Virus record (IMG/VR): IMGVR_UViG_3300020180_000066
Location: 1-35,046 of that record
From: a virus
Direction: 5' to 3' (one strand)
DNA length: 35,046 bases
The number at the start of each line of letters is the position of its first letter. Position 1 is the first letter of the stretch. Of the stretch, positions 8,229 to 24,656 are shown piece by piece. The notes beneath the pieces were generated by a model. It did no database searches, was not told the origin of the DNA, and saw only the letters and a program-made list of their open reading frames with translations. The translations under genes were made by a program, and so were the position numbers.

Positions 8229-8660
8229 ATGCACGATAAAGAAGGTCAGCAAATTGAAGACTTATATACGGAGTTTAAGTTGTTTGTGAAACAAGGGTCG
8301 GCTGCACTAAGATTAGTCCGAATGGACACGAAGAGAACTTTAGGGTTTCAGGAGAGCATACACGAGACTATGAAGTTAATCGCAGATACAGCCGAAAAGG
8401 GCGAAAAAAGGCAGGCAAGGTTAGAAGCCATAGCAGTTGGTAAAGACCAGATACCTTTAAAGACTCATTACGTAACGGTTGGCATAGTGGCGCTATGGTC
8501 GCTAGCGTTAACGCTTGGAGGAGTAATCGGAATACTTTATATTACTAATACGAACATAACGGGTACGCTTAGTTCGATACAAATTAACCAAGCTAAGGCT
8601 TTACAAAACCAAGCAGAAGTTAAGAAGGCTTTAGAAAAAGTTGAGGAGATTGTAAAATGA
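8229..8660 (+). CDS. Single-span membrane protein with coiled-coil flanks, possible lysis accessory
   Basis: This is a 143-residue protein starting six bases after the upstream stop, with GAGGA before its ATG. One membrane segment lies at about residues 82-106 ('VTVGIVALWSLALTLGGVIG'). The N-terminal 80 residues are charged and helical, and residues 115-143 are a second helical, coiled-coil-like stretch (KALQNQAEVKKALEKVEEIV). The stop overlaps the next start (ATGA). Its place just before a candidate hydrolase and a holin suggests a lysis accessory such as a spanin-like or holin-regulating protein, but the topology (central span) is not typical of a known spanin. Function is unproven. Confidence 0.75.
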   Translation: MHDKEGQQIEDLYTEFKLFVKQGSAALRLVRMDTKRTLGFQESIHETMKLIADTAEKGEKRQARLEAIAVGKDQIPLKTHYVTVGIVALWSLALTLGGVIGILYITNTNITGTLSSIQINQAKALQNQAEVKKALEKVEEIVK

Positions 8661-9613
8661 TAGAAGGGTTAGACCTATTAGCAGGTGCGCAATATAAAAA
8701 AGAGGTTACGCTGTTCTCCAATTACGCAACCGGCATTTTTGCGGAAACGTTCGGCGACGCTTACCCCGTAACGGAAGATACGTTAAAAAAGGGCTGTAAA
8801 CTAATTAGAATTCAGCTAATCTGGAGTGATAGCCATCAATTTGGCGATAGAGATATAAAAAAAGTAAAAGAGCTGTCTAGAAAATATAATATTTTAGCAA
8901 ACAAATATCCTGCTGCTGATATTCGGCTATCCCCTTTTTGCGAACACAATTTAAGCAATCCAGATAAATATTTAGATATAGCACAACTTGAAGCGCCAAA
9001 TTGCACGATTGTTAATACGCCATGGAAAGGGGCTTTTTCTGCGAAATATATTAATGAAATTCATGGCGATCATGCTAAACCATCAGGGCGCTATCAATAT
9101 TCGTTTGATGGCACAGAATGCACGAATGCAGACGTAGAAGGTTATAAGAAAAAATATGGAGATGCAGAGGTGTTCTTTATGTGGAGTAGCCGCTTTAATT
9201 TAAGGTTTCGCGAAAAAGACACAACCCCAAGACCGCAGAGAATCAAAGAATCAAAGATGCGCAAACCGAATAAAGATTACATCCAGTCAATTGCTTATTT
9301 ATTTAACGATAAGGGCAGATCATCACTGCCTAAACATTGGCTCGTGAAGTCTCACGCAGAGAAGCATCAAGCTAACGATTATAAAGGCGACAAGCTATTA
9401 ATAATAAGTCCAATTCATGCAGCAGCTATTGAGCTTAAACGAGGTAGTAAGATAATCGCTAAATTGCCTTATTACGGCAGCTTTGACGGCGGCGGCTTCC
9501 GTTACTATTCAGCAACTATGGGCTTCAAATTAGGTTCAGATTTAGACGTTTACATAAATAAAAAGAAGGTTGGCACTATTAACGGCGGCTTTAGAGATGG
9601 AAGTTTTAGATGA
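8657..9613 (+). CDS. Conserved phage protein in lysis module, possible TIM-barrel-type hydrolase
   Basis: This is a 318-residue protein that starts in an ATGA overlap. Residues about 45-200 show alternating beta strands and helices with conserved-looking short motifs (GCKLIRIQLIWSD, DIRLSPFCEHN, CTIVNTPWKGA, VFFMWSSRFN), as expected for a barrel-type glycosidase fold. Residues about 235-318 are beta-rich with a repeated GG/G pattern and could be a small binding domain. It has no signal peptide. It lies directly after a membrane protein and close to the holin, so it is the best positional candidate for the main endolysin, but none of the standard endolysin motifs (amidase, GH24, GH25, peptidase) is visible. 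The function is inference. Confidence 0.75.
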   Translation: MIEGLDLLAGAQYKKEVTLFSNYATGIFAETFGDAYPVTEDTLKKGCKLIRIQLIWSDSHQFGDRDIKKVKELSRKYNILANKYPAADIRLSPFCEHNLSNPDKYLDIAQLEAPNCTIVNTPWKGAFSAKYINEIHGDHAKPSGRYQYSFDGTECTNADVEGYKKKYGDAEVFFMWSSRFNLRFREKDTTPRPQRIKESKMRKPNKDYIQSIAYLFNDKGRSSLPKHWLVKSHAEKHQANDYKGDKLLIISPIHAAAIELKRGSKIIAKLPYYGSFDGGGFRYYSATMGFKLGSDLDVYINKKKVGTINGGFRDGSFR

Positions 9614-9861
9614 AGAAAACAAATATGGATAGCGGTTTGCCTTATATACTACCTTTTAAAGACGCGTTATGTCTCCATGGGGAGACTATCGACAGAAGTC
9701 ATTTGAATAAAATATATGCTGAGTATGACAGGGTCGACGATATGATAGATTTAAAGTTAAGTACGACTAATTCTATAACGCCAGAAGAAGCTACCACGGT
9801 TATTAGCCTGTTGGCCGAAGTTTTAAGGATGCGCGCTGATTTTAAAAAAATGGGAAGTTAG
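9610..9861 (+). CDS. Small hypothetical protein in lysis module
   Basis: This is an 83-residue protein beginning at an ATG overlapping the upstream stop (ATGA). The second half is helical (PEEATTVISLLAEVLRMRAD). There is no signal peptide, membrane span or recognisable motif. It is translationally coupled to the candidate hydrolase and followed 38 bases later by the holin, so it may belong to the lysis set. Confidence 0.65.
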   Translation: MKKTNMDSGLPYILPFKDALCLHGETIDRSHLNKIYAEYDRVDDMIDLKLSTTNSITPEEATTVISLLAEVLRMRADFKKMGS

Positions 9862-9898
9862 ATTTAAAAAGATATTTAATTAATATAAGGAAAACTTT

Positions 9899-10105
9899 AT
9901 GAGCGAATTAACTGGTAGTAAAATGGCGATTCTCAGCAAAACGAATTGGGGGGCTTTATTCATGTTCATAGCGCCTATAATTGCCGCGAGGACAGGTTTG
10001 ACGAGTGAAAACCTACTAGACATCGGTAATCTTGCAATTACCGCAGGAGGGGCTATTTTCACAATTTACAGCCGAATTAGAGCGAGTAAGAAAATATCGG
10101 GCTAA
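9899..10105 (+). CDS. Holin, two membrane segments
   Basis: This is a 68-residue protein with AAGG nine bases before its ATG. Two hydrophobic spans are seen, roughly residues 16-33 (TNWGALFMFIAPIIAA) and 44-61 (GNLAITAGGAIFTIYSRI), ending in a basic tail (RIRASKK). The 'K-T-x-WGAL' opening and the 'IYSRIRASKKI' end are typical of small class II phage holins. It would form the inner-membrane hole that times lysis. It is the last gene of the plus-strand late block; a large hairpin follows 13 bases after the stop. Confidence 0.8.
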   Translation: MSELTGSKMAILSKTNWGALFMFIAPIIAARTGLTSENLLDIGNLAITAGGAIFTIYSRIRASKKISG

Positions 10106-13183: not shown

Positions 13184-13414
13184 TTATTTATGGAACGCTA
13201 TTCTACCCCCGCCGTTCTTGTCACACTGGATTTCGTAATTACTTGATTGCGCTAAGCGCTCAAGGATATCGTCAGCCGATAATTCTATTATAGTTGTTGA
13301 TTTCGGCTGCAGTCTTTCCCTGATCCAAAACCCAGCTAACACCATCGAACCCAGCACTATAAATCCCACTATACCGTGAATTGTCGCGATTACTATTTGT
13401 TTTACTTTTTCCAT
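13184..13414 (-). CDS. Small single-span membrane protein
   Basis: This is a 76-residue protein starting at ATG 13414. Residues 8-31 form a clear membrane span ('IATIHGIVGFIVLGSMVLAG'), followed by a charged helical domain (ELSADDILERLAQSSNYEIQ) and a short basic tail. The ribosome-binding site is weak. A large imperfect hairpin (13432-13490) lies directly upstream in the leader. Function is unknown; inner membrane location is likely. Confidence 0.6.
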   Translation of the reverse strand: MEKVKQIVIATIHGIVGFIVLGSMVLAGFWIRERLQPKSTTIIELSADDILERLAQSSNYEIQCDKNGGGRIAFHK

Positions 13415-13431
13415 ATAATTTATTTTTTAAG

Positions 13432-13490
13432 GCGGGATAAGTTGTCCTAGCACATTGCATTTTGAGGAACTACCGGAACACTTACCCCGC
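13432..13490 (-). promoter_or_regulatory. Long imperfect stem-loop between two small membrane protein genes
   Basis: The arms 13432-13447 and 13475-13490 pair at 13 of 16 positions (GCGGG outer stem, TAAGT middle) around a 27-base loop. On the minus-strand transcript the stem is followed by TTAAAAAAT, not a T-run. It fills most of the gap between the lipoprotein-like gene (stop at 13498) and the membrane protein (start at 13414). A transcript-stability or translation-control element is likely. Confidence 0.4.
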
Positions 13491-13497
13491 TCGTTAG

Positions 13498-13674
13498 TTA
13501 CTTTCTTTTATCCGCCGTAAAAGTCTTATCTTCTATGGCTGTCTCGCCGTGATATCCTACTTCCAGTTTGAGACTACAACCTGTTAAATAACTAAGTAGT
13601 GATATCCATATTGCTGCCCAGAAAATAACGTTTATAAAACTTCCCTTCTGCTCGTTCTCTGTTCTTACTCTCAT
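13498..13674 (-). CDS. Small lipoprotein-like/membrane protein
   Basis: This is a 58-residue protein on the minus strand starting at ATG 13674, with GGAG ahead of it. A charged N-terminus of 12 residues is followed by a hydrophobic segment (FINVIFWAAIWISLLSYLTGC, residues 13-33 in total). It ends in LTGC|S, which fits a lipobox with Cys33. The remaining 25 residues are polar. The hydrophobic stretch has the length of a signal anchor, so it may be lipid-modified or simply membrane-anchored. An outer-spanin-like role is conceivable but the gene is in the early operon. Confidence 0.55.
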   Translation of the reverse strand: MRVRTENEQKGSFINVIFWAAIWISLLSYLTGCSLKLEVGYHGETAIEDKTFTADKRK

Positions 13675-15572: not shown

Positions 15573-15608
15573 AGTGAATCACTATTGACAACTCGATTAT
15601 GATTCACT
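15573..15608. promoter_or_regulatory. Inverted operator-like boxes AGTGAATCA/TGATTCACT
   Basis: AGTGAATCA at 15573-15581 and its exact reverse complement at 15600-15608 flank the -35 of the rightward promoter. A third copy in direct orientation lies at 15988-15996, at the expected start point of the promoter at 15950-15978. These are likely binding sites for the repressor-like protein encoded at 15686, but no binding data exist. Confidence 0.55.
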
Positions 15609-15613
15609 ATACT
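15585..15613 (+). promoter_or_regulatory. Rightward sigma70-like promoter for the repressor-like gene
   Basis: TTGACA at 15585-15590, a spacer of exactly 17 bases, and TATACT at 15608-15613. This is close to the bacterial consensus. Transcription would start near 15620 and read into the repressor-like gene at 15686. The promoter lies within the inverted operator-like boxes, so autoregulation is likely. Confidence 0.7.
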
Positions 15614-16032: not shown

Positions 16033-16323
16033 ATGAACGATAAACAAAAAGGTGTAGTTATTACCACAGAGAACAGAGGCGTGTTCTTCGGATACGTTAA
16101 AGACGACTCGGAATGCCCTGCTAAGATTATCTTACTAAAGTGCCGCATGGGCGTTTATTGGGACGCCGATACTAAGGGCGTCTTGGGTCTAGCTGCTACT
16201 GGCCCAACAAGCGGATGTCGGATAACTCACAGTACACCAGAAGCCACACTTTATAAGGTTACCGGCATCTTTGAATGCACCCCAGAAGCAGTCGTGGCGT
16301 GGGAGAATTCAGTTTGGAAGTAA
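16033..16323 (+). CDS. DUF6948-like conserved phage protein
   Basis: This is a 96-residue protein with AAGGA eight bases before its ATG. The opening 'VVITTENRGVFFGYVKDDSE', the centre VYWDADTKGVLGLAATGPTSGCRI and 'VTGIFECTPEAVVAWENSVW' match a family of small phage proteins (DUF6948, as I recall it) found next to Gly-rich small proteins. It is beta-rich. Function is unknown. It is the first gene of the accessory cassette and overlaps the first GY-rich gene. Confidence 0.65.
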   Translation: MNDKQKGVVITTENRGVFFGYVKDDSECPAKIILLKCRMGVYWDADTKGVLGLAATGPTSGCRITHSTPEATLYKVTGIFECTPEAVVAWENSVWK

Positions 16324-16787
16324 CTTTAGAGCACGTGAGCAAGGCGATTCAATTCGGGGCTAGTTCTAGCAATATACCAGAAGTGGGACAGTTGATTTCA
16401 GGCATCTCGCAGGAAACGCTAGTGTGGGCAGAGAATAAGAAGATACTGGATTCACCCATGTGGTATCATTGCGACTACGCCACCGGCACCGGCGACGGCC
16501 ACTACGGTGTCGGCTACTACGGCTACGACCACGGCTACGGCTTCGGCCACTACGGCTACGGTGACGGATACGGCGGCTACAGCTACAGCTACGGGTTCGG
16601 ATACGGCGACGGTGACAGCTTCGGCTACGGTGACAGCTACGGCTACGGCGGCGACAGCTACGGCTTCGGCGGCGACGGCACCGGCGACGGCACCGGCGAC
16701 GGCAACGCCTACGGCTACGGCGGCAGGGGCACCGGCGGCAACGGCAACGGCGACGGCTTGCTTAAGCTACTTTGGGGACTAATATGA
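16314..16787 (+). CDS. GY-rich repeat protein 1 (with unique N-terminal domain)
   Basis: This is a 157-residue protein if TTG 16314 is used (GGGAG eight bases upstream); GTG 16299 and ATG 16275 are alternatives. The N-terminal 50 residues are an ordinary helical domain (VTLEHVSKAIQFGAS, then ISQETLVWAENKKILDSPMWYHCDY). From about residue 57 on it is nearly all Gly, Tyr, Asp, Phe and Ser in GYG/GDG/GFG units, ending in LLKLLWGLI. The DNA of this part is very GC-rich (GGCTACGGC) compared with its AT-rich surroundings. The frame is fixed by the VTLE start, the shared LLKLLWGL end and the coupled junctions; other frames are open only because of the codon repeats. Function unknown; disordered, assembly-prone or adhesive behaviour is plausible. 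Confidence 0.75.
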   Translation: MEVTLEHVSKAIQFGASSSNIPEVGQLISGISQETLVWAENKKILDSPMWYHCDYATGTGDGHYGVGYYGYDHGYGFGHYGYGDGYGGYSYSYGFGYGDGDSFGYGDSYGYGGDSYGFGGDGTGDGTGDGNAYGYGGRGTGGNGNGDGLLKLLWGLI

Positions 16788-16825
16788 TGGGGACTAAGAT
16801 TATGGGGACTAAGATTATGGGGACT
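16774..16825 (+). repeat. Four-fold 15-bp repeat of a ribosome-binding-site/start module
   Basis: GGGGACT occurs at 16774, 16789, 16804 and 16819, exactly 15 bases apart, each followed by AA(T/G)AT and an ATG. The same GGGGACT precedes the starts at 17073, 17503 and 17781 once each. It looks like tandem duplication of the intercistronic module that couples these genes. In frame it encodes MGTKI-type repeats. Confidence 0.75.
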
Positions 16826-17080
16826 AATATGATGATTAAAGTAAAAGAGCAAGACAGATTCGGCGACGGATACGGCGGCTACGGCAACAGCTACAGTTAC
16901 GGCTTCGGCTACGGCGACGGTGACAGCTACGGCTACGGCGCCGACAGCTACGGCTTCGGCGGCGACGGCACCGGCAACGGCACCGGCTACGGCAACGCCT
17001 ACGGCTACGGCCACAAAGGCACCGGCGGCAACGGCAACGACGACAACCTGCTTAAACTATTATGGGGACTTGATGCTTAA
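16784..17080 (+). CDS. GY-rich repeat protein 2
   Basis: This is a protein of 98 residues from ATG 16784, which overlaps the stop of protein 1 as ATGA; ATG 16829 or 16832 would give about 82 residues. The early part is the MGTKI repeat, then IKVKEQDRFGDGYGGYGN, and then GYG/GDG/GTG units ending in NDDNLLKLLWGLDA. It lacks the SRTEVTLEEDYVF start of proteins 3 and 4. It is translationally coupled to its neighbours. Confidence 0.65.
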   Translation: MMGTKIMGTKIMGTNMMIKVKEQDRFGDGYGGYGNSYSYGFGYGDGDSYGYGADSYGFGGDGTGNGTGYGNAYGYGHKGTGGNGNDDNLLKLLWGLDA

Positions 17081-17510
17081 AGTAAGCCGAACGGAAGTAA
17101 CTTTAGAAGAAGACTACGTCTTTGGCGGCTACGGCTACGGCGACGGTGACGGCTTCGGCTACGGCTTCGGCTACGGCGGCTACGGCGGCTACGGCGATAG
17201 CTTCGCCTTCGGCTACGGCACCGGCTACGGCGGCTACGGCTTCGGCTACTACGACCACGGCTCCGGCCATTACGGCTACGGCGACGGCTACGGCTACGGC
17301 GACTACGGCTACGGCTACGCCTACGGCGACGGCTTCGGCTGTGGCAACGGCTACGGCTACGGCCACTACGGCGACGGCAGCGGCAGCGGCTACGGCGACG
17401 GCTACGGCTTCGGTGACAGCTACGGCTACGGCGCCGACAGCTACGGCTACGACTACGACGACGGCTACGACGACAACTTACTTAAACTACTATGGGGACT
17501 TGATGCTTAA
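17073..17510 (+). CDS. GY-rich repeat protein 3
   Basis: This is a 145-residue protein. ATG 17073 lies inside the stop of protein 2 (ATGCTTAA, 8-base overlap) with GGGGACT just upstream. It begins MLKVSRTEVTLEEDYVFGG, then has over 100 residues of GYG, GDG and GFG units, and ends in DDGYDDNLLKLLWGLDA. The first 64 bases are nearly identical to those of protein 4, showing recent duplication. Tyr and Gly dominate the repeat; there is one Cys. No known domain. Confidence 0.75.
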   Translation: MLKVSRTEVTLEEDYVFGGYGYGDGDGFGYGFGYGGYGGYGDSFAFGYGTGYGGYGFGYYDHGSGHYGYGDGYGYGDYGYGYAYGDGFGCGNGYGYGHYGDGSGSGYGDGYGFGDSYGYGADSYGYDYDDGYDDNLLKLLWGLDA

Positions 17511-17787
17511 AGCAAGCCGAACGGAAGTAACTTTAGAAGAAGACTACGTCTTCGGCGGCTACGGCGACGGCGGCGGCTACGGCGACGGCGACGGCTACGG
17601 CTTCGGCTTCGGCTTCGGCTACGGCGGCTACGGCGACAGCTACAGCCTCGGCGACGGCTTCGGCTTCGGCGGCGACGGCTACGGCTTCGGTGACAGCTAC
17701 GGCTACGGCGCCGACAGCTACGGCTACGACTACGACGACGGCTACGACGACAACTTACTTAAACTATTATGGGGACTAATATGCTAA
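17503..17787 (+). CDS. GY-rich repeat protein 4
   Basis: This is a 94-residue protein whose ATG overlaps the stop of protein 3 in the same ATGCTTAA arrangement. It begins MLKASRTEVTLEEDYVFGG and ends YDDNLLKLLWGLIC. The last 90 or so bases match protein 3 almost exactly. It differs mainly by a shorter repeat core with more Phe (GFGFGFG). Its stop overlaps the metalloprotease start by seven bases. Confidence 0.75.
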   Translation: MLKASRTEVTLEEDYVFGGYGDGGGYGDGDGYGFGFGFGYGGYGDSYSLGDGFGFGGDGYGFGDSYGYGADSYGYDYDDGYDDNLLKLLWGLIC

Positions 17788-18263
17788 TTAGAATTATATT
17801 ATTATTATCAGTAAATTTACAGCCAATTGAGGTACAATCATTCCTCGCGAGCAAGGGGCTAAAGGCGCAAGTGCAGATGATAAGATTATCAGAACCACTA
17901 AATCTGGGTGCGCAGCAAGATTACTTTAACGGTCTTATAGCAGCGTTCCAGTTTCGAGGTTATAGGCATATTTTATTAAATCCCTTTTATTCGGGGAAAA
18001 CGGAATACATATTAGGCTTCGCTTCTGGTAACTTGTCGATGAGCGTGTGGAACGATACGAACGATAAAGGAGAGCCGAGGCGATTACATTCTTTAAGTGC
18101 CATCGCTCACGAACTAGGTCATAGTCTATTAAGATTAAAGCATACCACAGGCTGCACCACTATCATGGACGAGCAAGCGCTATGGTGCCCTAACCTTGCT
18201 TCACTTACCTTTAGCCCAGCCCAGCGCATGAAGATAAAGTTTAAAGCACAACACAGGCGATAA
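17781..18263 (+). CDS. Metzincin-like zinc metalloprotease with hydrophobic N-terminus
   Basis: This is a 160-residue protein from ATG 17781, preceded by GGGGACT; ATG 17769 is four codons earlier. Residues 2-10 (LIRIILLLS) are hydrophobic and could be a short export signal. The zinc motif is HELGHSLLRLKH: His110, Glu111, His114 and His121, with one extra residue before the third His compared with the classical HExxHxxGxxH. TGCTTIMD follows with Met129 as a candidate Met-turn, and Cys125 and Cys136 could form a disulfide. This combination is characteristic of metzincin-type proteases. Substrate unknown; a host envelope or extracellular protein is inferred from the signal and neighbours. Confidence 0.75.
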   Translation: MLIRIILLLSVNLQPIEVQSFLASKGLKAQVQMIRLSEPLNLGAQQDYFNGLIAAFQFRGYRHILLNPFYSGKTEYILGFASGNLSMSVWNDTNDKGEPRRLHSLSAIAHELGHSLLRLKHTTGCTTIMDEQALWCPNLASLTFSPAQRMKIKFKAQHRR

Positions 18264-18521
18264 TTGGACCGTAAACGATTTACTATTAGCGAGTACCTCG
18301 AAGTAATAGCGGCAGACGGCCGAGAAGCGGAAGCTGAATTTATTAAAAAGTACATTGATAGTCTGGAATCGCGCATATTCGAGCTAAAGCCGATGGCCGA
18401 CAACTGGCAGCGATTTCAAAGGGCCAAAGCTATGAAGCTTCTTAAAGACTATTCAGAGTTTGACGAGATATTGAGGCTTCGAGATAGGGTAGCAGAATTA
18501 GAACTTGAGCTAAAGCCATGA
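18264..18521 (+). CDS. Small coiled-coil protein
   Basis: This is an 85-residue protein starting at TTG 18264, directly after the protease stop (TAATTG), with AGGCGA upstream; no in-frame ATG gives a full-length product. It is highly charged and helical (YLEVIAADGREAEAEFIKKY, RLRDRVAELELELK), likely a coiled coil. Its stop overlaps the LpxR-like start as ATGA. Function unknown. Confidence 0.6.
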   Translation: MDRKRFTISEYLEVIAADGREAEAEFIKKYIDSLESRIFELKPMADNWQRFQRAKAMKLLKDYSEFDEILRLRDRVAELELELKP

Positions 18522-19321
18522 AGCTTCTCTTATCAGTTATACTACTCCCTAGCTTGGCCTTTGGAGATTGTTCATTCAAATGGGAAAACGACTACGTTAA
18601 GCCAGGCGGCCTAGATCACAACTATACGAACGGTGTTACATTAAGATGCGGCAAGTGGTCAGTAGTTAATGAGATGTATACCCCCACAGAGAAGAACTCC
18701 GACCTCGTTGATACCGGTGACCGGCCTTGGGACGGTATTACCTACATGCAACACGAGAATAAATGGGATATTAGATCAGGCGAAGCCGTTGTTTTAAAGA
18801 CAAGAATCGGTGTAGTCGGTAAAGCTTCCGGTACGCAAGCACTGCAGCAGACAGTGCACGACGATTGGGGATGGGGAGAGCATCCTACATGGGCAGGGCA
18901 GAACCCAACAGAGCCTACCCTAAGTTTTGTTCTCTCAAAGAGGAACCGTGAGTACCTTCAGAGCATAATAGGTGACTCGATGATTGAAAATGAATATGGC
19001 ATAGAGGCTGGGAACGTTAAAGATAGATTATTTTTATGTCAAACATTACAGAAGCACTTTTATAAATATATATATCCTTATGCGGGTCTATGCGGGGAAG
19101 CCGTTCTTTATAACACCCACCTAGACGGAAGGCTTTTTTCAGAAAATAGCTACACGGTTAACAAAAACTGGTTCGTAGCAGAGGCGAGAGCAGGGATACG
19201 ACTATACTTTCCAGGCTTAGGGTTCAGCGTTGACTATGCGTATAAATACAGAACCGAGGAATTCGACAAGCAAATAGGAAGACATACCTTTGGAGCTTTA
19301 GAATTCACTTGGAATATTTAG
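18518..19321 (+). CDS. LpxR-family lipid A 3'-O-deacylase homologue (DUF2219)
   Basis: This is a 267-residue protein starting in an ATGA overlap. Residues 1-16 (MKLLLSVILLPSLAFG) are a clear Sec signal peptide, with mature start near Asp17. The family pattern is present in order: FKWENDYV (Asn24, Asp25), HNYTNGVTL (Thr37, Asn38), DRPWDGITYM, RIGVVGKASG, QQTVHDDWGWGEHPTW (His114), then EPTLSFVLSKRNREYL, and a beta-rich C-terminus ending ALEFTWNI, as for an outer-membrane barrel. In LpxR the Asn-Asp pair and the His are catalytic, removing the 3' acyloxyacyl chain from lipid A; all are kept here. It would act in the outer membrane of the host, perhaps altering the receptor or excluding other phages. 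Confidence 0.8.
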   Translation: MKLLLSVILLPSLAFGDCSFKWENDYVKPGGLDHNYTNGVTLRCGKWSVVNEMYTPTEKNSDLVDTGDRPWDGITYMQHENKWDIRSGEAVVLKTRIGVVGKASGTQALQQTVHDDWGWGEHPTWAGQNPTEPTLSFVLSKRNREYLQSIIGDSMIENEYGIEAGNVKDRLFLCQTLQKHFYKYIYPYAGLCGEAVLYNTHLDGRLFSENSYTVNKNWFVAEARAGIRLYFPGLGFSVDYAYKYRTEEFDKQIGRHTFGALEFTWNI

Positions 19322-19689: not shown

Positions 19690-19752
19690 CCGCGCAACGC
19701 GCTACTACTGGATGTAGCATATGGGCCAATGCGTCGCGGTCGATAGTACGAC
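19690..19752 (+). other. Nested hairpins, candidate structured RNA or site
   Basis: Directly after the terminator: CCGCG (19690-19694) pairs with CGCGG (19735-19739), ACGC (19697-19700) with GCGT (19731-19734), and inside them GCTAC (19701-19705) with GTAGC (19714-19718). A further GTCG/CGAC pair follows at 19739-19742 and 19749-19752. The GC-rich nested stem stands out in an AT-rich stretch. Role unknown: small RNA, or a packaging/origin element. Confidence 0.35.
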
Positions 19753-19927
19753 TTAATAACAAAAACTAGTATTAGAGAAATGTGTGAGTTAGTTAAAGGT
19801 TACAACGCTTGGAATCGCATCTCTATAATGCTTTTAATCTATTTCTTTTAGGAATTTAGATTAGTAGTAAAGGGGAATTGGCCCTGTGTGCTCAAAATCA
19901 GGTATATTAACATAAAATAAGGTAAAA

Positions 19928-20107
19928 ATGAAAAAACTAATATTACTAGCAGTAGTCATACTAGCTGGATGCTCTTACTATACGGACAGGCGCTTAGATG
20001 GGAACTTCCAGGCGACGAAAGCCGCTTTTGAAGTTACATCAAAAGCTCACAACGAAATTGTAAAAAGAATTGAACACTTAGAAGCTAATAAGGCGTCTAA
20101 AAAATAA
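19928..20107 (+). CDS. Small lipoprotein, possible outer spanin-like
   Basis: This is a 59-residue protein with AAGG six bases before its ATG. It begins MKKLILLAVVILAGCSYYTD: a signal with a lipobox LAGC at residues 12-15, so Cys15 would be lipidated. The mature part of 45 residues is helical and charged (TKAAFEVTSKAHNEIVKRIE). It stands alone between the noncoding stretch and the iterons. Small lipoproteins of this size serve as outer-membrane spanins in Gram-negative phages, but no partner gene is adjacent, so another role is possible. Confidence 0.7.
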   Translation: MKKLILLAVVILAGCSYYTDRRLDGNFQATKAAFEVTSKAHNEIVKRIEHLEANKASKK

Positions 20108-20132
20108 AGTAGTGAAGTAGAGCAACAGCTAT

Positions 20133-20232
20133 TTGGTTAACTATATAGATAACTAGATAGTTAACTAGATAGTTAACCAAAATAGTTAACCAAGATAGAT
20201 AGCTAGAATTGTTAACCAAAATAGTTAACCAA
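20133..20232. repeat. Iteron array of ATAGTTAACCAA
   Basis: Six copies of a 12-mer: an inverted copy at 20133-20144, then direct copies at 20157 (two mismatches), 20169, 20182, 20208 (one mismatch) and 20221. Spacings are 12, 13, 26 and 13 bases. The last copy ends just before the AAGGAG of the next gene. Such arrays bind initiator or terminase-type proteins, or repressors. Confidence 0.75.
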
Positions 20233-20244
20233 GGAGAAACCAAA

Positions 20245-20592
20245 ATGTTAGACGCTAGACCCGAGAAGGCACTCTTAATGGCGATGCTAGAACGCGCCAT
20301 ACTGGATTTTTTAAAGAAAACCGAGTACTCCCCAGGCAGAACATCCGTTTACGAAAATCCTCAAGAGACAGCTAGTAGATGGCTGTTAGAGAGCGTAAGA
20401 GAGGCACCCTTTACCTTCATATGGACTTGCGATATGTTAGATCTCAATAAAGATTTAATAAGACAGAACATTATCGAGATTAAAGAAAGAGGTGAAAGTT
20501 TAAGGGCTAGCCACCTCTGGTCCGATGCCGTCTATGGTTGTCTTGAGCATGTTTACTCTTCCCCGAACGATGCAGAGTTGTATATTTGCTAA
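20245..20592 (+). CDS. Hypothetical protein upstream of terminase
   Basis: This is a 115-residue protein from ATG 20245, with AAGGAG ten bases upstream; the longer start at 20209 would run through the iterons. It is helical (LLMAMLERAILDFLKKTEY, 'ETASRWLLESVREAPFTFIW') with a stretch IRQNIIEIKERGESLR that could be a recognition helix. It is the first gene after the iteron array and sits before terS. I do not recognise it; a DNA-binding or packaging accessory protein is possible. Confidence 0.7.
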   Translation: MLDARPEKALLMAMLERAILDFLKKTEYSPGRTSVYENPQETASRWLLESVREAPFTFIWTCDMLDLNKDLIRQNIIEIKERGESLRASHLWSDAVYGCLEHVYSSPNDAELYIC

Positions 20593-20600
20593 GCGTGCTC

Positions 20601-20633
20601 ATAACAATTAGATAACAATGTTATAACAATGTT
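20601..20633. repeat. Three 11-bp direct repeats at the terS start
   Basis: ATAACAAT recurs at 20601, 20612 and 20623, exactly 11 bases apart, about one helical turn each. The third copy contains the first bases of the terS start codon (ATG 20629). Phased repeats beside terS are suitable for binding by the small terminase or for autoregulation. Confidence 0.6.
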
Positions 20634-20892
20634 TGAAAAAGGTAAGTCAGGGAACCCGGGCGGAAGACCAAAAATAGCACAGGAGGTTAAGTTACTCGCT
20701 CAAGCGTACAGTATCGAGGCCATAGAATATTTATATGCACTCATGAAGGATAAGAGCGCAGACCCTAAGACACGTAAATCCGCAGCGGATTCCATACTAG
20801 ACCGCGCCATTGGCAAGCCATCACAAGACATAGAGATAAGCGCAGATGCAGACCTCACAGCAATCCTCAACCTTACCCTCAAAGGGAAGTAG
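20629..20892 (+). CDS. Terminase small subunit-like protein
   Basis: This is an 87-residue protein. The N-terminus 'MFEKGKSGNPGGRPKIAQEV' is the KGxSGNPGGRPK motif (DUF5681-like) often found in phage proteins placed just before the large terminase. The rest is helical: 'AQAYSIEAIEYLYALMKDKS', 'KTRKSAADSILDRAIGKPSQ'. It is shorter than many small terminases but its position is typical. Phased repeats lie at its start. It overlaps the large terminase by 47 bases. Confidence 0.75.
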   Translation: MFEKGKSGNPGGRPKIAQEVKLLAQAYSIEAIEYLYALMKDKSADPKTRKSAADSILDRAIGKPSQDIEISADADLTAILNLTLKGK

Positions 20893-22396
20893 TTTAGATG
20901 TAGGCTTGTATCCGAGACAGATGCAAGCGCTATTAACCAACGCGACTAATTATCTATTCGGCGGTGCTTCCGAAGGCGGCAAGAGCTTCTTTGTGCGAAT
21001 TGCCTTAATTACTTGGTGCCACCTTATCCCAGGTTTAGAGACCTTTATTTATAGAAAGTATTATGCAGACGTAATATCCAACCACATGAACGGCCCAACA
21101 GGTTTTAGAGCGCTATTAAAACCCTGGGAGGAGGCGAAGATAGTTAAGATTACGGAAGACCAGGTTACCTGGACTAGAACCGGCTCAACTATTAGCCTAA
21201 AGGCAATCCAGTTGGCTAAGGACTTAGAGAAGCATCAAGGCATCGAGAAGCATGTATTAGTTTTGGAAGAATCGACGCAATTGCCAGAGGCTCATATATT
21301 AGGGTTAGAAGCCTGGACGCGAATGTCGCTAGATATGAAGGAGAAGCTTCCAGAGCAACTAAAGGACCTTTACCCGCATATAGCTTACGAAGATAGAAAG
21401 GCTTTATTCCCGCGCGTAATTAAGACCGCCAACCCGGTTGGCCTATCGGTTGGATACCATAAACGCAAGTATATATTACCGAGGCCAGCGTTCGAGATAG
21501 AAAAACTTGGTGCCTGGAAATACCAGTACATACCTTCTAAGATACTTGATAACCCCTCAGCCGACCCGGAAGCTCAGCGGGCGAGGTTATCAGAGCTAGG
21601 CGAGGCACAAGCTCGAGCTTATATTGAAGGCGACTGGACGGCGCCAACAGGGGACTTCTATGAAGAATACAACGACGAGATTCACGCCGTACCGAACTTC
21701 ATGCCGCCTTCCTATTGGTTTAAGTTTCGTACATTTGACTGGGGGGGGTCTGACCCCTTTGCTGTACTCTGGGCTTGCATTTCAGACGGCCAACCATTTC
21801 TTGACGAGAACGGCAAAGAGCGCTGGTTTCCGCTAGGTGCATTAATCTATTATCGCGAGTGGTACGGATGCGACCCTAACAAGCAATCTAGGGGGTTAAA
21901 CATGCGTAATGAAGACATTGCTAAAGGCATTGTAGAGAGCACGCCTGAGACTACTTGCGGAATTACTTTATCGGACAACTTTCCATTTGCTGACCGAGGC
22001 AGTTCAAAGAACGGCGCTAAATACACGATGGCCGATGACTTCTTCTCGAACGGTTGTCCCTTAACACTAGGCAACACGGCTAGGGTGTATGGATATAAAC
22101 AGATGCGGTCTAGGCTGCAGGGACAAGATGGATTCCCGATGATTTACATCTGCCATTCGTGTATATATCTTAGAGAGTACTTGCCAGCCCTACCAAGGCA
22201 CGCGACGAAGCCGGACGACGCAGCGGAATCGGGCGAAGCAACCCACGTAACCGACGCTGCTAGGTTGGGTTGTGCAGCGAAGCCGTTTATTAAGACGCAG
22301 AACATAGCTCTTCCCCCAAAGTTTAAAGTTGATAATGTATCCGCATCACCGAGCCAACTATTAAAGCTGATTAAAAAGCGTGACAGAAGAAGATAA
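20846..22396 (+). CDS. Terminase large subunit
   Basis: This is a 516-residue protein. Walker A is GGASEGGKS at residues 39-47, and Walker B LVLEE at 138-142. The RNase H-type nuclease domain has the acidic residues of TFDWGGSDPF (Asp298) and of GITLSDNFPF, plus DDAAESGEATHVTDAARLG near the C-terminus. It would cut and pump DNA into the prohead through the portal. The start lies inside terS; a conserved LYPRQ motif just after residue 20 requires a start at or near 20846. The portal start overlaps its end. Confidence 0.9.
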   Translation: MQTSQQSSTLPSKGSSLDVGLYPRQMQALLTNATNYLFGGASEGGKSFFVRIALITWCHLIPGLETFIYRKYYADVISNHMNGPTGFRALLKPWEEAKIVKITEDQVTWTRTGSTISLKAIQLAKDLEKHQGIEKHVLVLEESTQLPEAHILGLEAWTRMSLDMKEKLPEQLKDLYPHIAYEDRKALFPRVIKTANPVGLSVGYHKRKYILPRPAFEIEKLGAWKYQYIPSKILDNPSADPEAQRARLSELGEAQARAYIEGDWTAPTGDFYEEYNDEIHAVPNFMPPSYWFKFRTFDWGGSDPFAVLWACISDGQPFLDENGKERWFPLGALIYYREWYGCDPNKQSRGLNMRNEDIAKGIVESTPETTCGITLSDNFPFADRGSSKNGAKYTMADDFFSNGCPLTLGNTARVYGYKQMRSRLQGQDGFPMIYICHSCIYLREYLPALPRHATKPDDAAESGEATHVTDAARLGCAAKPFIKTQNIALPPKFKVDNVSASPSQLLKLIKKRDRRR

Positions 22397-24656
22397 GGGT
22401 CATACAGTAAGTTACTTGCATAAATGGATAACGGCTTCAAGGAAGGCTGCTAAGAACCATTGGCACGCAAGCAGGGCGGCCTACGCTGAATTTAATAAAG
22501 ACGGCGGGAAGCTCTCAACAAGTAAAGAAGCATTTAACATCAGCGAAGGCTGGTATCCGATCTATCATAGTTCAGTGAAGACAGTAGAGGCAGCATATTA
22601 TGCAAGGACGCCTAAGCTAACAACTAACCGCCTTTGGGATAATTCTGATGAGAGTATAATTAGGCGAAGCACATACCTAGAGAGACTAGGCGATAATCTT
22701 CTTAAATACTCACATATTGACGATGCAATGAGAGCGGCGGTGCAAGACTTTATCCATGCAGATAAGGCTACGGTACAGCTAGTTTATGAAGGCAGCGCCG
22801 TAGAATCACTGGAGAGAATCGGCCTAGAACAGCGTATCAATGACGATGGGGCTGCTGAATATTACGAGGGCGATAGTTCGTACCCTGATGAAGTATTCGA
22901 AGATGACGAGGGATATTTCTATAGTAAAAGCGCTAGCAAAATAGAGGGGCAGAAGATTTACCTGTCGCCACTGTGCTACGATGAAGTCCTACACAGCCCG
23001 GAAGCTAAGACCGAAGCAGAAATTACTATTAAAGCTTACAAGTTCAGCCTGACATGGGACGAAGTAAAACAGCGTTTTGGGGAAGAGAAGGCAACTAAAG
23101 TTAAGGACTTCTTTAAAGCTTCGAACTCTTACAAGTCGGACGATAGGGATTCAGACGAGACCCCAGAAGCGCCGGGTAAGTTTTTAGAAGGTTGGGAAGT
23201 TTATTGCAAGAAGACATATAAGGTCTACTGGGTTAATGAAGATTACAAAGACGATTGCCTCGACATCAAAGATTACATGTATGACTTGGAAGGCGTATTT
23301 CCATCACCTAAATTTAGAATAAGCTCTAAGCCTCCGAAGTCTCTCTACCCGACACCGGAATTTGTACACCTAAGAAATTTATTAGGCCAGCTTCATGAGC
23401 TACAGGACAAGATGTTTCGGGGAATTAAGACAATTGAGCGGAAGATTATTATTGATGGGGCAGAAAAGGATTTAATCCTAGCGCTCGAGAGTGCTGAGAA
23501 TGTTTACGTTGCTGCCGAAAACTTTCAAAGTATAGTCGAGAAAGGCGGAGTGGCTGGCATCTTACTTGACGTGCCCGTACGGGAATTCGTAGCAGCATTG
23601 ACAGAATTTACGCAGTTAAAGACTGAATTTAAAAACGAATTCTTCGAACACTTCGGTGTGCCGGATATCCTCAGAGGAATATCGGATGCGATGGAAACTG
23701 CAGCAGCGCAAGAAATTAAACAGGGCGCAGCTTATGACCGTTTTCGCTACAACAAAAAACAGCTAACAGACCTAGCCCGTGATGCAATCGAAATGATGAT
23801 AGACCTCGCGCTAAAGGTTTATGACGACCAGAAAATAGCACAAATCGTAGGCGGGAACATTCTAGACGCCGTGTTCTTAGAGGACTTAGCTTTTTTAAGA
23901 AATGACACTGAGCGGACGATAAGAATAGATATCGAGACAGATTCAACCAACTTTATTAACGAACAAGCGCAAGTGCAGCAGAAGACAGCAGTAACAACTA
24001 CGCTGGTACAAGGTATGCAGCAGATTTCAGCAATGCTTACTAACGGTCAACCTGAATATGCTGCCGTGTCTTTACATGCGCTAACCTCGCTTCTTGATTC
24101 AATGCCCGGCGGGAAGGCTTACGTCCAGGAGATGAAGGGATATACACAACAGCTTATAGAAAAAGCTATGCAGCCACCAGAAGCAACGCCACCTCCGCCT
24201 GATTATGAAGGCATGAAACAGCAGAACGCAGCTAATAAGATTCAGCTAGACAGTCAGAGTAAGATGAGAGAATTAGATCAAAGAGAATTCAAGTTACAGT
24301 TAGATCAACAGCAGCAGAACTTCGACCAACAAATTACAGCCCAGCAAGCGGCACTAAACGAGAGAGTCGAGCAGGCATACGAGATGATTGAATTTACGAA
24401 GCTCGAAATGGCCAAGATGTCAGAACAATTAGAAGCGGTTAATAAAGTAGAGGACAATAAGCGGTTAGAGAATCAGCAGGTGTTAGATACGATTGCAATA
24501 CTGCAATCTAAAGTAGACGCGCCAGTTAAGCCTACGACACCAAATATTACAGTAAATGTTGGTGGGGCTAAAAAGAAGGTTAAAGTTAAAAGAACCGCGG
24601 AAGGGCTAGAAGGCGAGAGCTTCGATTATGAAGATATCGCACCAGTAATTATATAA
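22380..24656 (+). CDS. Portal protein
   Basis: This is a 758-residue protein starting at GTG 22380, overlapping the terminase by 17 bases. The long N-terminal and central part (for example KTVEAAYYARTPKL, 'SPLCYDEVLHSPEAKTEAEI', FKNEFFEHFGVPDILRGISD) fits P22-type podoviral portals. The C-terminal 140 residues are a long coiled coil rich in Gln and Glu ('QLDQQQQNFDQQITAQQAAL'), then TVNVGGAKKKVKVKRTAEG. A coiled-coil barrel at the C-terminus is typical of large podoviral portals. It forms the dodecameric ring for DNA entry and the head-tail junction. Confidence 0.85.
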   Translation: MTEEDKGHTVSYLHKWITASRKAAKNHWHASRAAYAEFNKDGGKLSTSKEAFNISEGWYPIYHSSVKTVEAAYYARTPKLTTNRLWDNSDESIIRRSTYLERLGDNLLKYSHIDDAMRAAVQDFIHADKATVQLVYEGSAVESLERIGLEQRINDDGAAEYYEGDSSYPDEVFEDDEGYFYSKSASKIEGQKIYLSPLCYDEVLHSPEAKTEAEITIKAYKFSLTWDEVKQRFGEEKATKVKDFFKASNSYKSDDRDSDETPEAPGKFLEGWEVYCKKTYKVYWVNEDYKDDCLDIKDYMYDLEGVFPSPKFRISSKPPKSLYPTPEFVHLRNLLGQLHELQDKMFRGIKTIERKIIIDGAEKDLILALESAENVYVAAENFQSIVEKGGVAGILLDVPVREFVAALTEFTQLKTEFKNEFFEHFGVPDILRGISDAMETAAAQEIKQGAAYDRFRYNKKQLTDLARDAIEMMIDLALKVYDDQKIAQIVGGNILDAVFLEDLAFLRNDTERTIRIDIETDSTNFINEQAQVQQKTAVTTTLVQGMQQISAMLTNGQPEYAAVSLHALTSLLDSMPGGKAYVQEMKGYTQQLIEKAMQPPEATPPPPDYEGMKQQNAANKIQLDSQSKMRELDQREFKLQLDQQQQNFDQQITAQQAALNERVEQAYEMIEFTKLEMAKMSEQLEAVNKVEDNKRLENQQVLDTIAILQSKVDAPVKPTTPNITVNVGGAKKKVKVKRTAEGLEGESFDYEDIAPVII

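What the first reader, a model, noticed from the sequence alone, without database searches (positions are those of the whole stretch)
18518..19321. Phage-encoded LpxR-like lipid A deacylase
The protein has a signal peptide and the whole LpxR pattern in order, with the catalytic Asn-Asp (ENDY), TNG and His (TVHDDWG) retained. LpxR removes the 3' acyloxyacyl chain of lipid A in the outer membrane. On a phage it could reshape lipopolysaccharide during infection, for example to block superinfection, weaken the envelope for lysis or alter host surface sensing. It is a possible new type of phage-borne envelope modification.
Basis: partly seen in the sequence, partly recalled or inferred. Interest (0 to 1): 0.85.

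Follow-up and report, generated by a model that had tools for sequence, protein, structure and literature searches.

The report
Phage lipid A deacylase (LpxR family)
A bacterial virus carries a gene for an outer-membrane enzyme that, to judge by its fold and active site, cuts fatty chains off the host's endotoxin; such genes were already recorded on an E. coli phage, but this one belongs to a separate, divergent phage lineage that in one relative sits among the genes that burst the host cell.

Summary
ORF 18518-19321 is an LpxR-family (PF09982) outer-membrane barrel: Pfam E 7e-34. Its AlphaFold model matches Salmonella LpxR at Z 26.4, far above any other barrel. The five residues essential in Yersinia LpxR (N9, D10, S/T34, Q118, H122) are N24, D25, T37, Q110, H114. 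The window is a virus record with a 127-bp terminal repeat, so probably a complete tailed-phage genome. 'Lipid A deacylase' is well supported but not assayed; the host is unknown. 'New type of phage-borne envelope modification' is only partly right: phage 434 carries an annotated LpxR, the same gene as in EHEC, whose lipid A activity is published. What is new is a divergent phage clade (window plus two IMG/VR phages, 36-37% identity, support 100/98) absent from 50,697 phage records; viral LpxRs arose more than once (AU p 0.006). All three phages otherwise share only a TIM-barrel protein of the lysis cassette. In one of them, and in an unrelated contig, LpxR lies beside holin-like genes. Window relatives lack LpxR, so it is accessory. 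Likely role: outer-membrane weakening for release, or surface change against superinfection; the data do not decide.

The parts
18518..19321 (+). LpxR-family outer-membrane lipid A deacylase, 267 aa
   Evidence: Pfam PF09982 E 6.9e-34; AF2 pLDDT 87.7; PDB 3fid LpxR Z 26.4, rmsd 2.5 over 246 residues
18518..18565 (+). putative Sec signal peptide (residues 1-16, MKLLLSVILLPSLAFG)
   Evidence: read from sequence; low-confidence helix in the model before strand 1; no predictor available
18587..18592 (+). N24-D25, equivalents of Salmonella N9-D10 (calcium site)
   Evidence: alignment: N and D in all viral and 49 of 49 bacterial or plasmid homologues compared; N9A and D10A inactive in PMC3486919 Table 2
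18626..18628 (+). T37, equivalent of S/T34
   Evidence: S34A inactive in PMC3486919
18845..18859 (+). Q110 and H114, equivalents of Q118 and catalytic H122, on the loop helix 106-117
   Evidence: Q118A and H122A inactive in PMC3486919
18264..18521 (+). 85-aa coiled-coil-like ORF whose stop overlaps the lpxR start (ATGA), likely the same operon
   Evidence: weak match phrog_1638, unknown function
17769..18263 (+). putative secreted metzincin-like metalloprotease (HELGHSLLRLKH...IMDE), directly upstream
   Evidence: read from sequence; homologues of 30-33% identity in related phages; no Pfam or PDB sequence match
19928..20107 (+). 59-aa small lipoprotein candidate (lipobox LAGC) between lpxR and the terminase genes; possibly o-spanin-like
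   Evidence: lipobox scan; purine-rich ribosome-binding-site-like stretch before its start
8657..9613 (+). TIM-barrel glycosidase-like protein of the lysis cassette; apart from lpxR the only window gene found in both phages that carry close LpxR relatives
   Evidence: model pLDDT 93.5; best PDB match GH5-like 3kzs Z 14.4, residues 1-219
9899..10105 (+). small holin-like ORF after the TIM-barrel gene
   Evidence: read from sequence and position; no Pfam match; did not pass the hydropathy threshold of the TM scan
15585..15613 (+). sigma-70-like promoter (TTGACA-17-TATACT) at the divergent junction; could drive the plus-strand genes that include lpxR
   Evidence: 11 of 12 matches; the number of such sites in the region is as expected by chance
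20629..24656 (+). terminase small-subunit candidate, terminase large subunit and portal protein, downstream of lpxR

Best explanation
The gene encodes an LpxR-type lipid A 3'-O-deacylase made by the phage during infection. Inferred steps: the protein is exported by Sec, folded into the outer membrane as a 12-stranded barrel, and uses a calcium ion held by N24, D25 and T37 and a water activated by H114 (with Q110) to hydrolyse the 3'-acyloxyacyl ester of lipid A in the outer leaflet. Shown here: the family, the predicted fold, the retained active site, the phage setting, the existence of a divergent phage clade, and its linkage with lysis genes in a relative. The role I find most likely (about 0.4) is to thin and loosen the outer leaflet late in infection so that the outer membrane fails and progeny are released, as an optional aid to the holin, endolysin and lipoprotein genes; the main alternative is to change the surface early and shut out other phages (about 0.3). 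The confidence below is for the enzyme identity, not for the role.
For: Family and fold. Active site: all five residues whose mutation abolishes activity in Yersinia LpxR (PMC3486919 Table 2) are present, and are invariant in the other viral and 49 bacterial or plasmid homologues apart from S/T at one site. Real phage genome. Phage clade. Lysis link: in G001 the gene lies after a lysozyme (PF00959, E 1e-14), a lipoprotein of the TIM-barrel family, a small putative holin and a VRR-NUC ORF, all on one strand; in the separate contig L094 it overlaps the end of a holin-like ORF with two hydrophobic segments; window, G001 and G002 all share only LpxR and the TIM-barrel protein, and that TIM-barrel protein sits beside lysozyme- or transglycosylase-like and holin-like genes in L125 and L126. 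Precedent for a lipid esterase in lysis: mycobacteriophage LysB (PMC5707550). An open slot exists: about 13% of tailed phages of Gram-negative hosts lack identifiable spanins (PMC12819732).
Against: No activity or expression data. Host unknown, so the lipid A substrate is unknown. In the window itself lpxR is about 8.4 kb from the lysis cassette and near the start of the plus-strand genes, which fits earlier expression. Cells tolerate LpxR expression (PMC3486919, PMC12571757), so it is not lytic alone. The window has small lipoprotein candidates that could be spanins. Relatives of this phage lack LpxR. Glu128 is missing.
Confidence: 0.7

Rival explanations
1. Superinfection exclusion or receptor masking: the enzyme is made early and alters lipid A so that related phages adsorb or inject less well.
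For: lpxR lies in an accessory region near the start of the plus-strand genes, away from the lysis cassette; it is sporadic among related phages, as exclusion genes often are. In phage 434 it is on the strand opposite to the late genes.
Against: Lipid A acyl chains are buried and are rarely phage receptors (general knowledge). In G001 and L094 the gene is with holin-like genes.
Confidence: 0.3
2. Lysogenic conversion or fitness gene: it changes the host surface to benefit a lysogen or carrier cell, as EHEC LpxR dampens innate immune sensing.
For: Phage 434 LpxR matches EHEC lpxR, found next to prophage antitermination genes (PMC13192938), and EHEC LpxR attenuates TLR4 signalling (Ogawa et al. 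2018, cited in PMC6863877). Two window relatives carry integrase-like genes (L126, L128; read).
Against: No integrase was recognised in the window, and nothing suggests an animal-associated host.
Confidence: 0.2
3. Same fold and chemistry but a different substrate, for example another acylated surface lipid or an unusual lipid A of the host.
For: Only 17-20% identity to Salmonella LpxR; Glu128 differs; host unidentified.
Against: All five catalytic residues retained.
Confidence: 0.15
4. Non-catalytic outer-membrane barrel (for example a sensor or structural decoy).
For: Yersinia LpxR catalytic mutants still restore some regulatory phenotypes (PMC3486919).
Against: The active site is conserved across a phage clade of only 36-37% identity.
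Confidence: 0.05

Closest known systems
Salmonella Typhimurium LpxR (PDB 3fid), lipid A 3'-O-deacylase, Pfam PF09982
   Same: 12-stranded barrel with loop helix, the calcium and histidine active-site residues, predicted outer-membrane location
   Different: 17-20% identity, shorter (267 vs 319 aa precursor), no Glu128, encoded by a phage
Escherichia phage 434 LpxR (CPT_434_65) = phrog_2309 = EHEC prophage-linked LpxR
   Same: LpxR family on a tailed phage
   Different: Separate acquisition (AU p 0.006); lambdoid temperate phage, on the strand opposite to the late genes; window protein matches phrog_2309 only at E 0.0026
LpxR proteins of IMG/VR phages G001 (32.1 kb, terminal repeat) and G002 (38.7 kb)
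   Same: Same clade, 36-37% identity, shared DRPWDG and QNPxE motifs; both phages also have the TIM-barrel lysis-linked protein
   Different: No detectable similarity in structural genes; in G001 the gene is in the lysis cassette, in the window it is not
Mycobacteriophage LysB (mycolyl-arabinogalactan esterase)
   Same: Would be a phage lipid esterase acting on the outer lipid layer in the third step of lysis (PMC5707550)
   Different: Different protein and substrate; analogy only, role of the phage LpxR not shown
Bacterial and plasmid LpxR-family proteins (Marinobacter, Hydrogenophaga, Desulfobacteraceae and others)
   Same: 23-30% identity, same active site
   Different: Outside the phage clade

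Membership tests
LpxR lipid A 3'-O-deacylase (PF09982) | Match to the family profile over its curated cut-off | tested here: met
   117.7 bits against 26, E 6.9e-34; also by genome search
LpxR lipid A 3'-O-deacylase (PF09982) | 12-stranded outer-membrane barrel with active-site helix in an extracellular loop | tested here: met
   12 strands and helix 106-117 in a model of pLDDT 87.7; 3fid Z 26.4, next barrel 17.4
LpxR lipid A 3'-O-deacylase (PF09982) | Residues essential for activity: N9, D10, S/T34, Q118, H122 | tested here: met
   N24, D25, T37, Q110, H114; essentiality from PMC3486919 Table 2
LpxR lipid A 3'-O-deacylase (PF09982) | Glu128, proposed to orient the histidine (variable in the family, so not counted as defining) | tested here: not met
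   Gly in the window, G001 and G002; among 49 bacterial or plasmid homologues D 27, Q 7, E 5
LpxR lipid A 3'-O-deacylase (PF09982) | Signal peptide and export to the outer membrane | tested here: inconclusive
   Hydrophobic N-terminus followed by the first strand; no signal-peptide predictor available
LpxR lipid A 3'-O-deacylase (PF09982) | Calcium-dependent removal of the 3'-acyloxyacyl chain of lipid A | not testable with these tools
   needs expression and mass spectrometry
phrog_2309 (phage 434 / EHEC LpxR cluster) | Member of this phage protein cluster | tested here: not met
   E 0.0026 over 80 residues against 3e-230 for the phage 434 protein
Phage outer-membrane disruptors (functional class of spanins and disruptins) | Gene in the lysis cassette beside holin and endolysin | tested here: inconclusive
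   Yes in G001, and beside a holin-like ORF in L094; no in the window, G002, L093 and phage 434
Phage outer-membrane disruptors (functional class of spanins and disruptins) | Required for, or able to restore, outer-membrane rupture at lysis | not testable with these tools
   needs phage genetics

The most novel reading that the evidence does not exclude
LpxR-type esterases are an enzymatic class of outer-membrane disruptors in phages of Gram-negative hosts, a counterpart of mycobacteriophage LysB: acquired several times from bacteria and used with the holin, endolysin and the TIM-barrel protein to break the outer membrane at lysis.
Probability: 0.25. Interest if true: 0.75.

Novelty: new variant of a known kind. 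Interest (0 to 1): 0.48.

Why it matters
How phages without recognisable spanins open the outer membrane is an open question (PMC12819732). A lipid A deacylase placed among lysis genes is a concrete, testable candidate. If it instead works early, it would be an enzyme that edits lipid A to alter phage competition, which I did not find described in the papers searched. Either way, repeated capture of lpxR by unrelated phages suggests that lipid A acylation matters to phages.

Tried and rejected
Single-sequence scan of viral contigs and tblastn against 50,697 phage records found no relative; an alignment query was needed. A first scan of genome contigs with the phage-only alignment found nothing. 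Host search failed: the TIM-barrel family gave no hit in 247, 247 and 398 genomes of three phyla, which shows nothing without a positive control, and none in phage records. Capsid and portal resemble Mx8-like and rhizobial phages at 20-34% identity, too far to name a host. A single origin of all viral LpxRs was considered and rejected (AU p 0.006, or 0.002 without phage 434), with the caveat of long branches. No LpxR-like viral model stood out in the viral structure library (weak evidence of absence). Rejected: another barrel family (3fid stands 9 Z units above the next); a bacterial contaminant (terminal repeat, phage genes around it, ordinary G+C and codon use). A claim that the window phage lacks spanins was dropped after a 59-aa lipoprotein was found at 19928-20107. 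NCBIfam gave no match, but none either for two annotated LpxR proteins tried as controls. PADLOC gave nothing for LpxR. Rfam and tRNA scans of the window were empty.

Full report
Observation. The ORF at 18518-19321 is real, 267 aa, without internal stop. It matches Pfam LpxR at E 6.9e-34 over three stretches covering most of the profile. Against the PDB by sequence alone only Salmonella LpxR (3fid) is a plausible hit (E 0.013), rising to E 1.5e-26 with a family profile. An AlphaFold2 model built on 39 family members has mean pLDDT 87.7 and shows 12 strands with a helix at residues 106-117. Foldseek gives 3fid E 4.6e-14; the structural aligner gives 3fid Z 26.4, rmsd 2.5 over 246 residues, with the next barrel, KdgM, at 17.4.

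Active site. In Yersinia LpxR, changing N9, D10, S34, Q118 or H122 abolishes lipid A deacylation (PMC3486919, Table 2), and the proposed mechanism is calcium plus a histidine-activated water (PMC6260217). Aligned through the phage 434 protein, the window has N24, D25, T37, Q110 and H114 at these positions; N, D, Q and H are invariant in all viral and 49 bacterial or plasmid homologues compared, and the remaining position is S or T. Glu128, listed with the active site in PMC6863877, is Gly in the window clade, but this position is also variable in bacteria (D 27, Q 7, E 5 of 49). Lys67 aligns with a Lys in the window but is not conserved in the family.

It is on a phage. The record is a virus record, 35,046 bases with a 127-bp direct terminal repeat, with terminase large subunit, portal, major head protein, RecT-like and replication genes. 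G+C and codon use of lpxR are like those of the other genes. No integrase was recognised. The host is unknown.

Neighbourhood. Upstream, probably in one operon (ATGA overlap), lie an 85-aa coiled-coil-like ORF and a putative exported metzincin-like protease (17769-18263). Downstream is a 59-aa lipoprotein candidate (19928-20107), then the terminase genes. The likely lysis cassette is elsewhere: 8229-10105, with a membrane/coiled-coil protein, a 318-aa protein predicted to fold as a TIM barrel most like GH5-type glycosidases (pLDDT 93.5; Z 14.4), and a small holin-like ORF. A strong promoter-like site at 15585-15613 could start the plus-strand genes, although such sites are no more common than chance in the region.

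Relatives. An alignment search of 2.9 million viral contigs found two relatives at 36-37% identity, in phage G001 (32.1 kb, also with a 127-bp terminal repeat) and phage G002 (38.7 kb). With the window they form a clade with support 100/98 in a careful tree and 97 in a second tree with closer bacterial hits added. Bacterial homologues are 23-30% identical. Two other viral contigs, L093 and L094, carry LpxR of other lineages. Holding all viral LpxRs together is rejected (AU p 0.006; without phage 434 p 0.002), with the caveat that long branches are involved. So phages probably took lpxR more than once.

Link to lysis. Compared gene by gene (tblastn E 0.01 or better, low-complexity ORFs left out), window, G001 and G002 all have in common only LpxR and the TIM-barrel protein; window and G001 also have one replication protein. 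In G001 the order on one strand is a small membrane protein, lysozyme (PF00959, E 1e-14), TIM-barrel lipoprotein, small putative holin, VRR-NUC ORF, LpxR. In L094 LpxR overlaps the end of a holin-like ORF with two hydrophobic segments. In further phages related to the window the TIM-barrel gene lies beside lysozyme- or transglycosylase-like and holin-like genes (L125, L126). Against this, in the window and G002 LpxR is not in the cassette, in phage 434 it is on the strand opposite to the late genes, and L093 shows no lysis gene nearby. Two direct holin neighbours among six viral cases is suggestive, not proof.

Accessory gene. Fourteen virus records that carry the TIM-barrel gene, several of them sharing terminase, portal or structural genes with the window, have no LpxR, though some are fragments. 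LpxR is therefore optional for this kind of phage.

What was known. Phage 434 carries an annotated LpxR. The gene is found in 618 of 5,426 complete E. coli genomes, 616 of them at 99% identity or more, and LpxR together with antiterminator Q is described as a conserved prophage neighbourhood in pathogenic E. coli (PMC13192938). EHEC lpxR modifies lipid A and damps TLR4 sensing (Ogawa et al. 2018, as cited in PMC6863877 and PMC9263587). PHROGs holds that cluster as phrog_2309 without a function. I found no paper on phage LpxR in lysis or exclusion, within an open-access library.

Mechanism and role. Most likely the protein is exported, folds in the outer membrane and removes the 3'-acyloxyacyl chain of lipid A; this rests on family, fold and active site, with activity inferred. 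For the role I give lysis aid 0.4, superinfection exclusion or surface change 0.3, lysogen or host fitness 0.2, other 0.1. LpxR is tolerated by cells that express it (PMC3486919, PMC12571757), so at lysis it would weaken rather than break the membrane. LysB of mycobacteriophages is a precedent for a lipid esterase in the third step of lysis (PMC5707550), and phages without recognisable spanins are an acknowledged gap (PMC12819732).

Verdict. Observation confirmed; identity well supported; novelty claim reduced to a new, divergent phage lineage of a known phage-borne enzyme, with a testable link to lysis.

Noticed in passing
window 8657-9613: Unnamed phage protein family (predicted TIM barrel, GH5-like fold, conserved EHNL, NEIH-like and SxDG motifs) with at least 15 viral members, no Pfam, PHROG or phage-record match, next to lysozyme and holin-like genes: a possible new lysis-associated glycosidase.
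   Followed up: partly
window 17769-18263; L128:15148-15417, L133:8662-9030, L136:8662-9030: Putative exported metzincin-like protease (HELGHSLLRLKH, IMDE) shared at about 30% identity by related phages; in L133 and L136 it is a few genes upstream of the TIM-barrel lysis gene.
   Followed up: partly
window 16275-17787: Tandem ORFs of Gly/Tyr-rich repeats, built on CGGCTA arrays with G+C 63% against 45% for the genome, that share the tail LLKLLWGL; function unknown.
   Followed up: no
L098 (G002:C1:19374-38746), G002 19724-20705: Phage G002 has an analogous cluster of tandem low-complexity ORFs, two of them starting MKIT, rich in Ser/Arg, not far from its lpxR.
   Followed up: no
window 13184-13674, minus strand: Adjacent small membrane protein and lipoprotein (LTGC lipobox) ORFs in the early region; the lipoprotein is also found in L126 and L138.
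   Followed up: no
window 20136-20233: AT-rich tandem repeats of 13 and 39 bases (TAGTTAACCAAA units) just upstream of the terminase genes; possible packaging or replication signal.
   Followed up: no
L092:4482-6594 (phage 434): The annotated CII-dependent paQ promoter points towards the phage 434 lpxR, which might therefore be switched on at lysogenisation.
   Followed up: no
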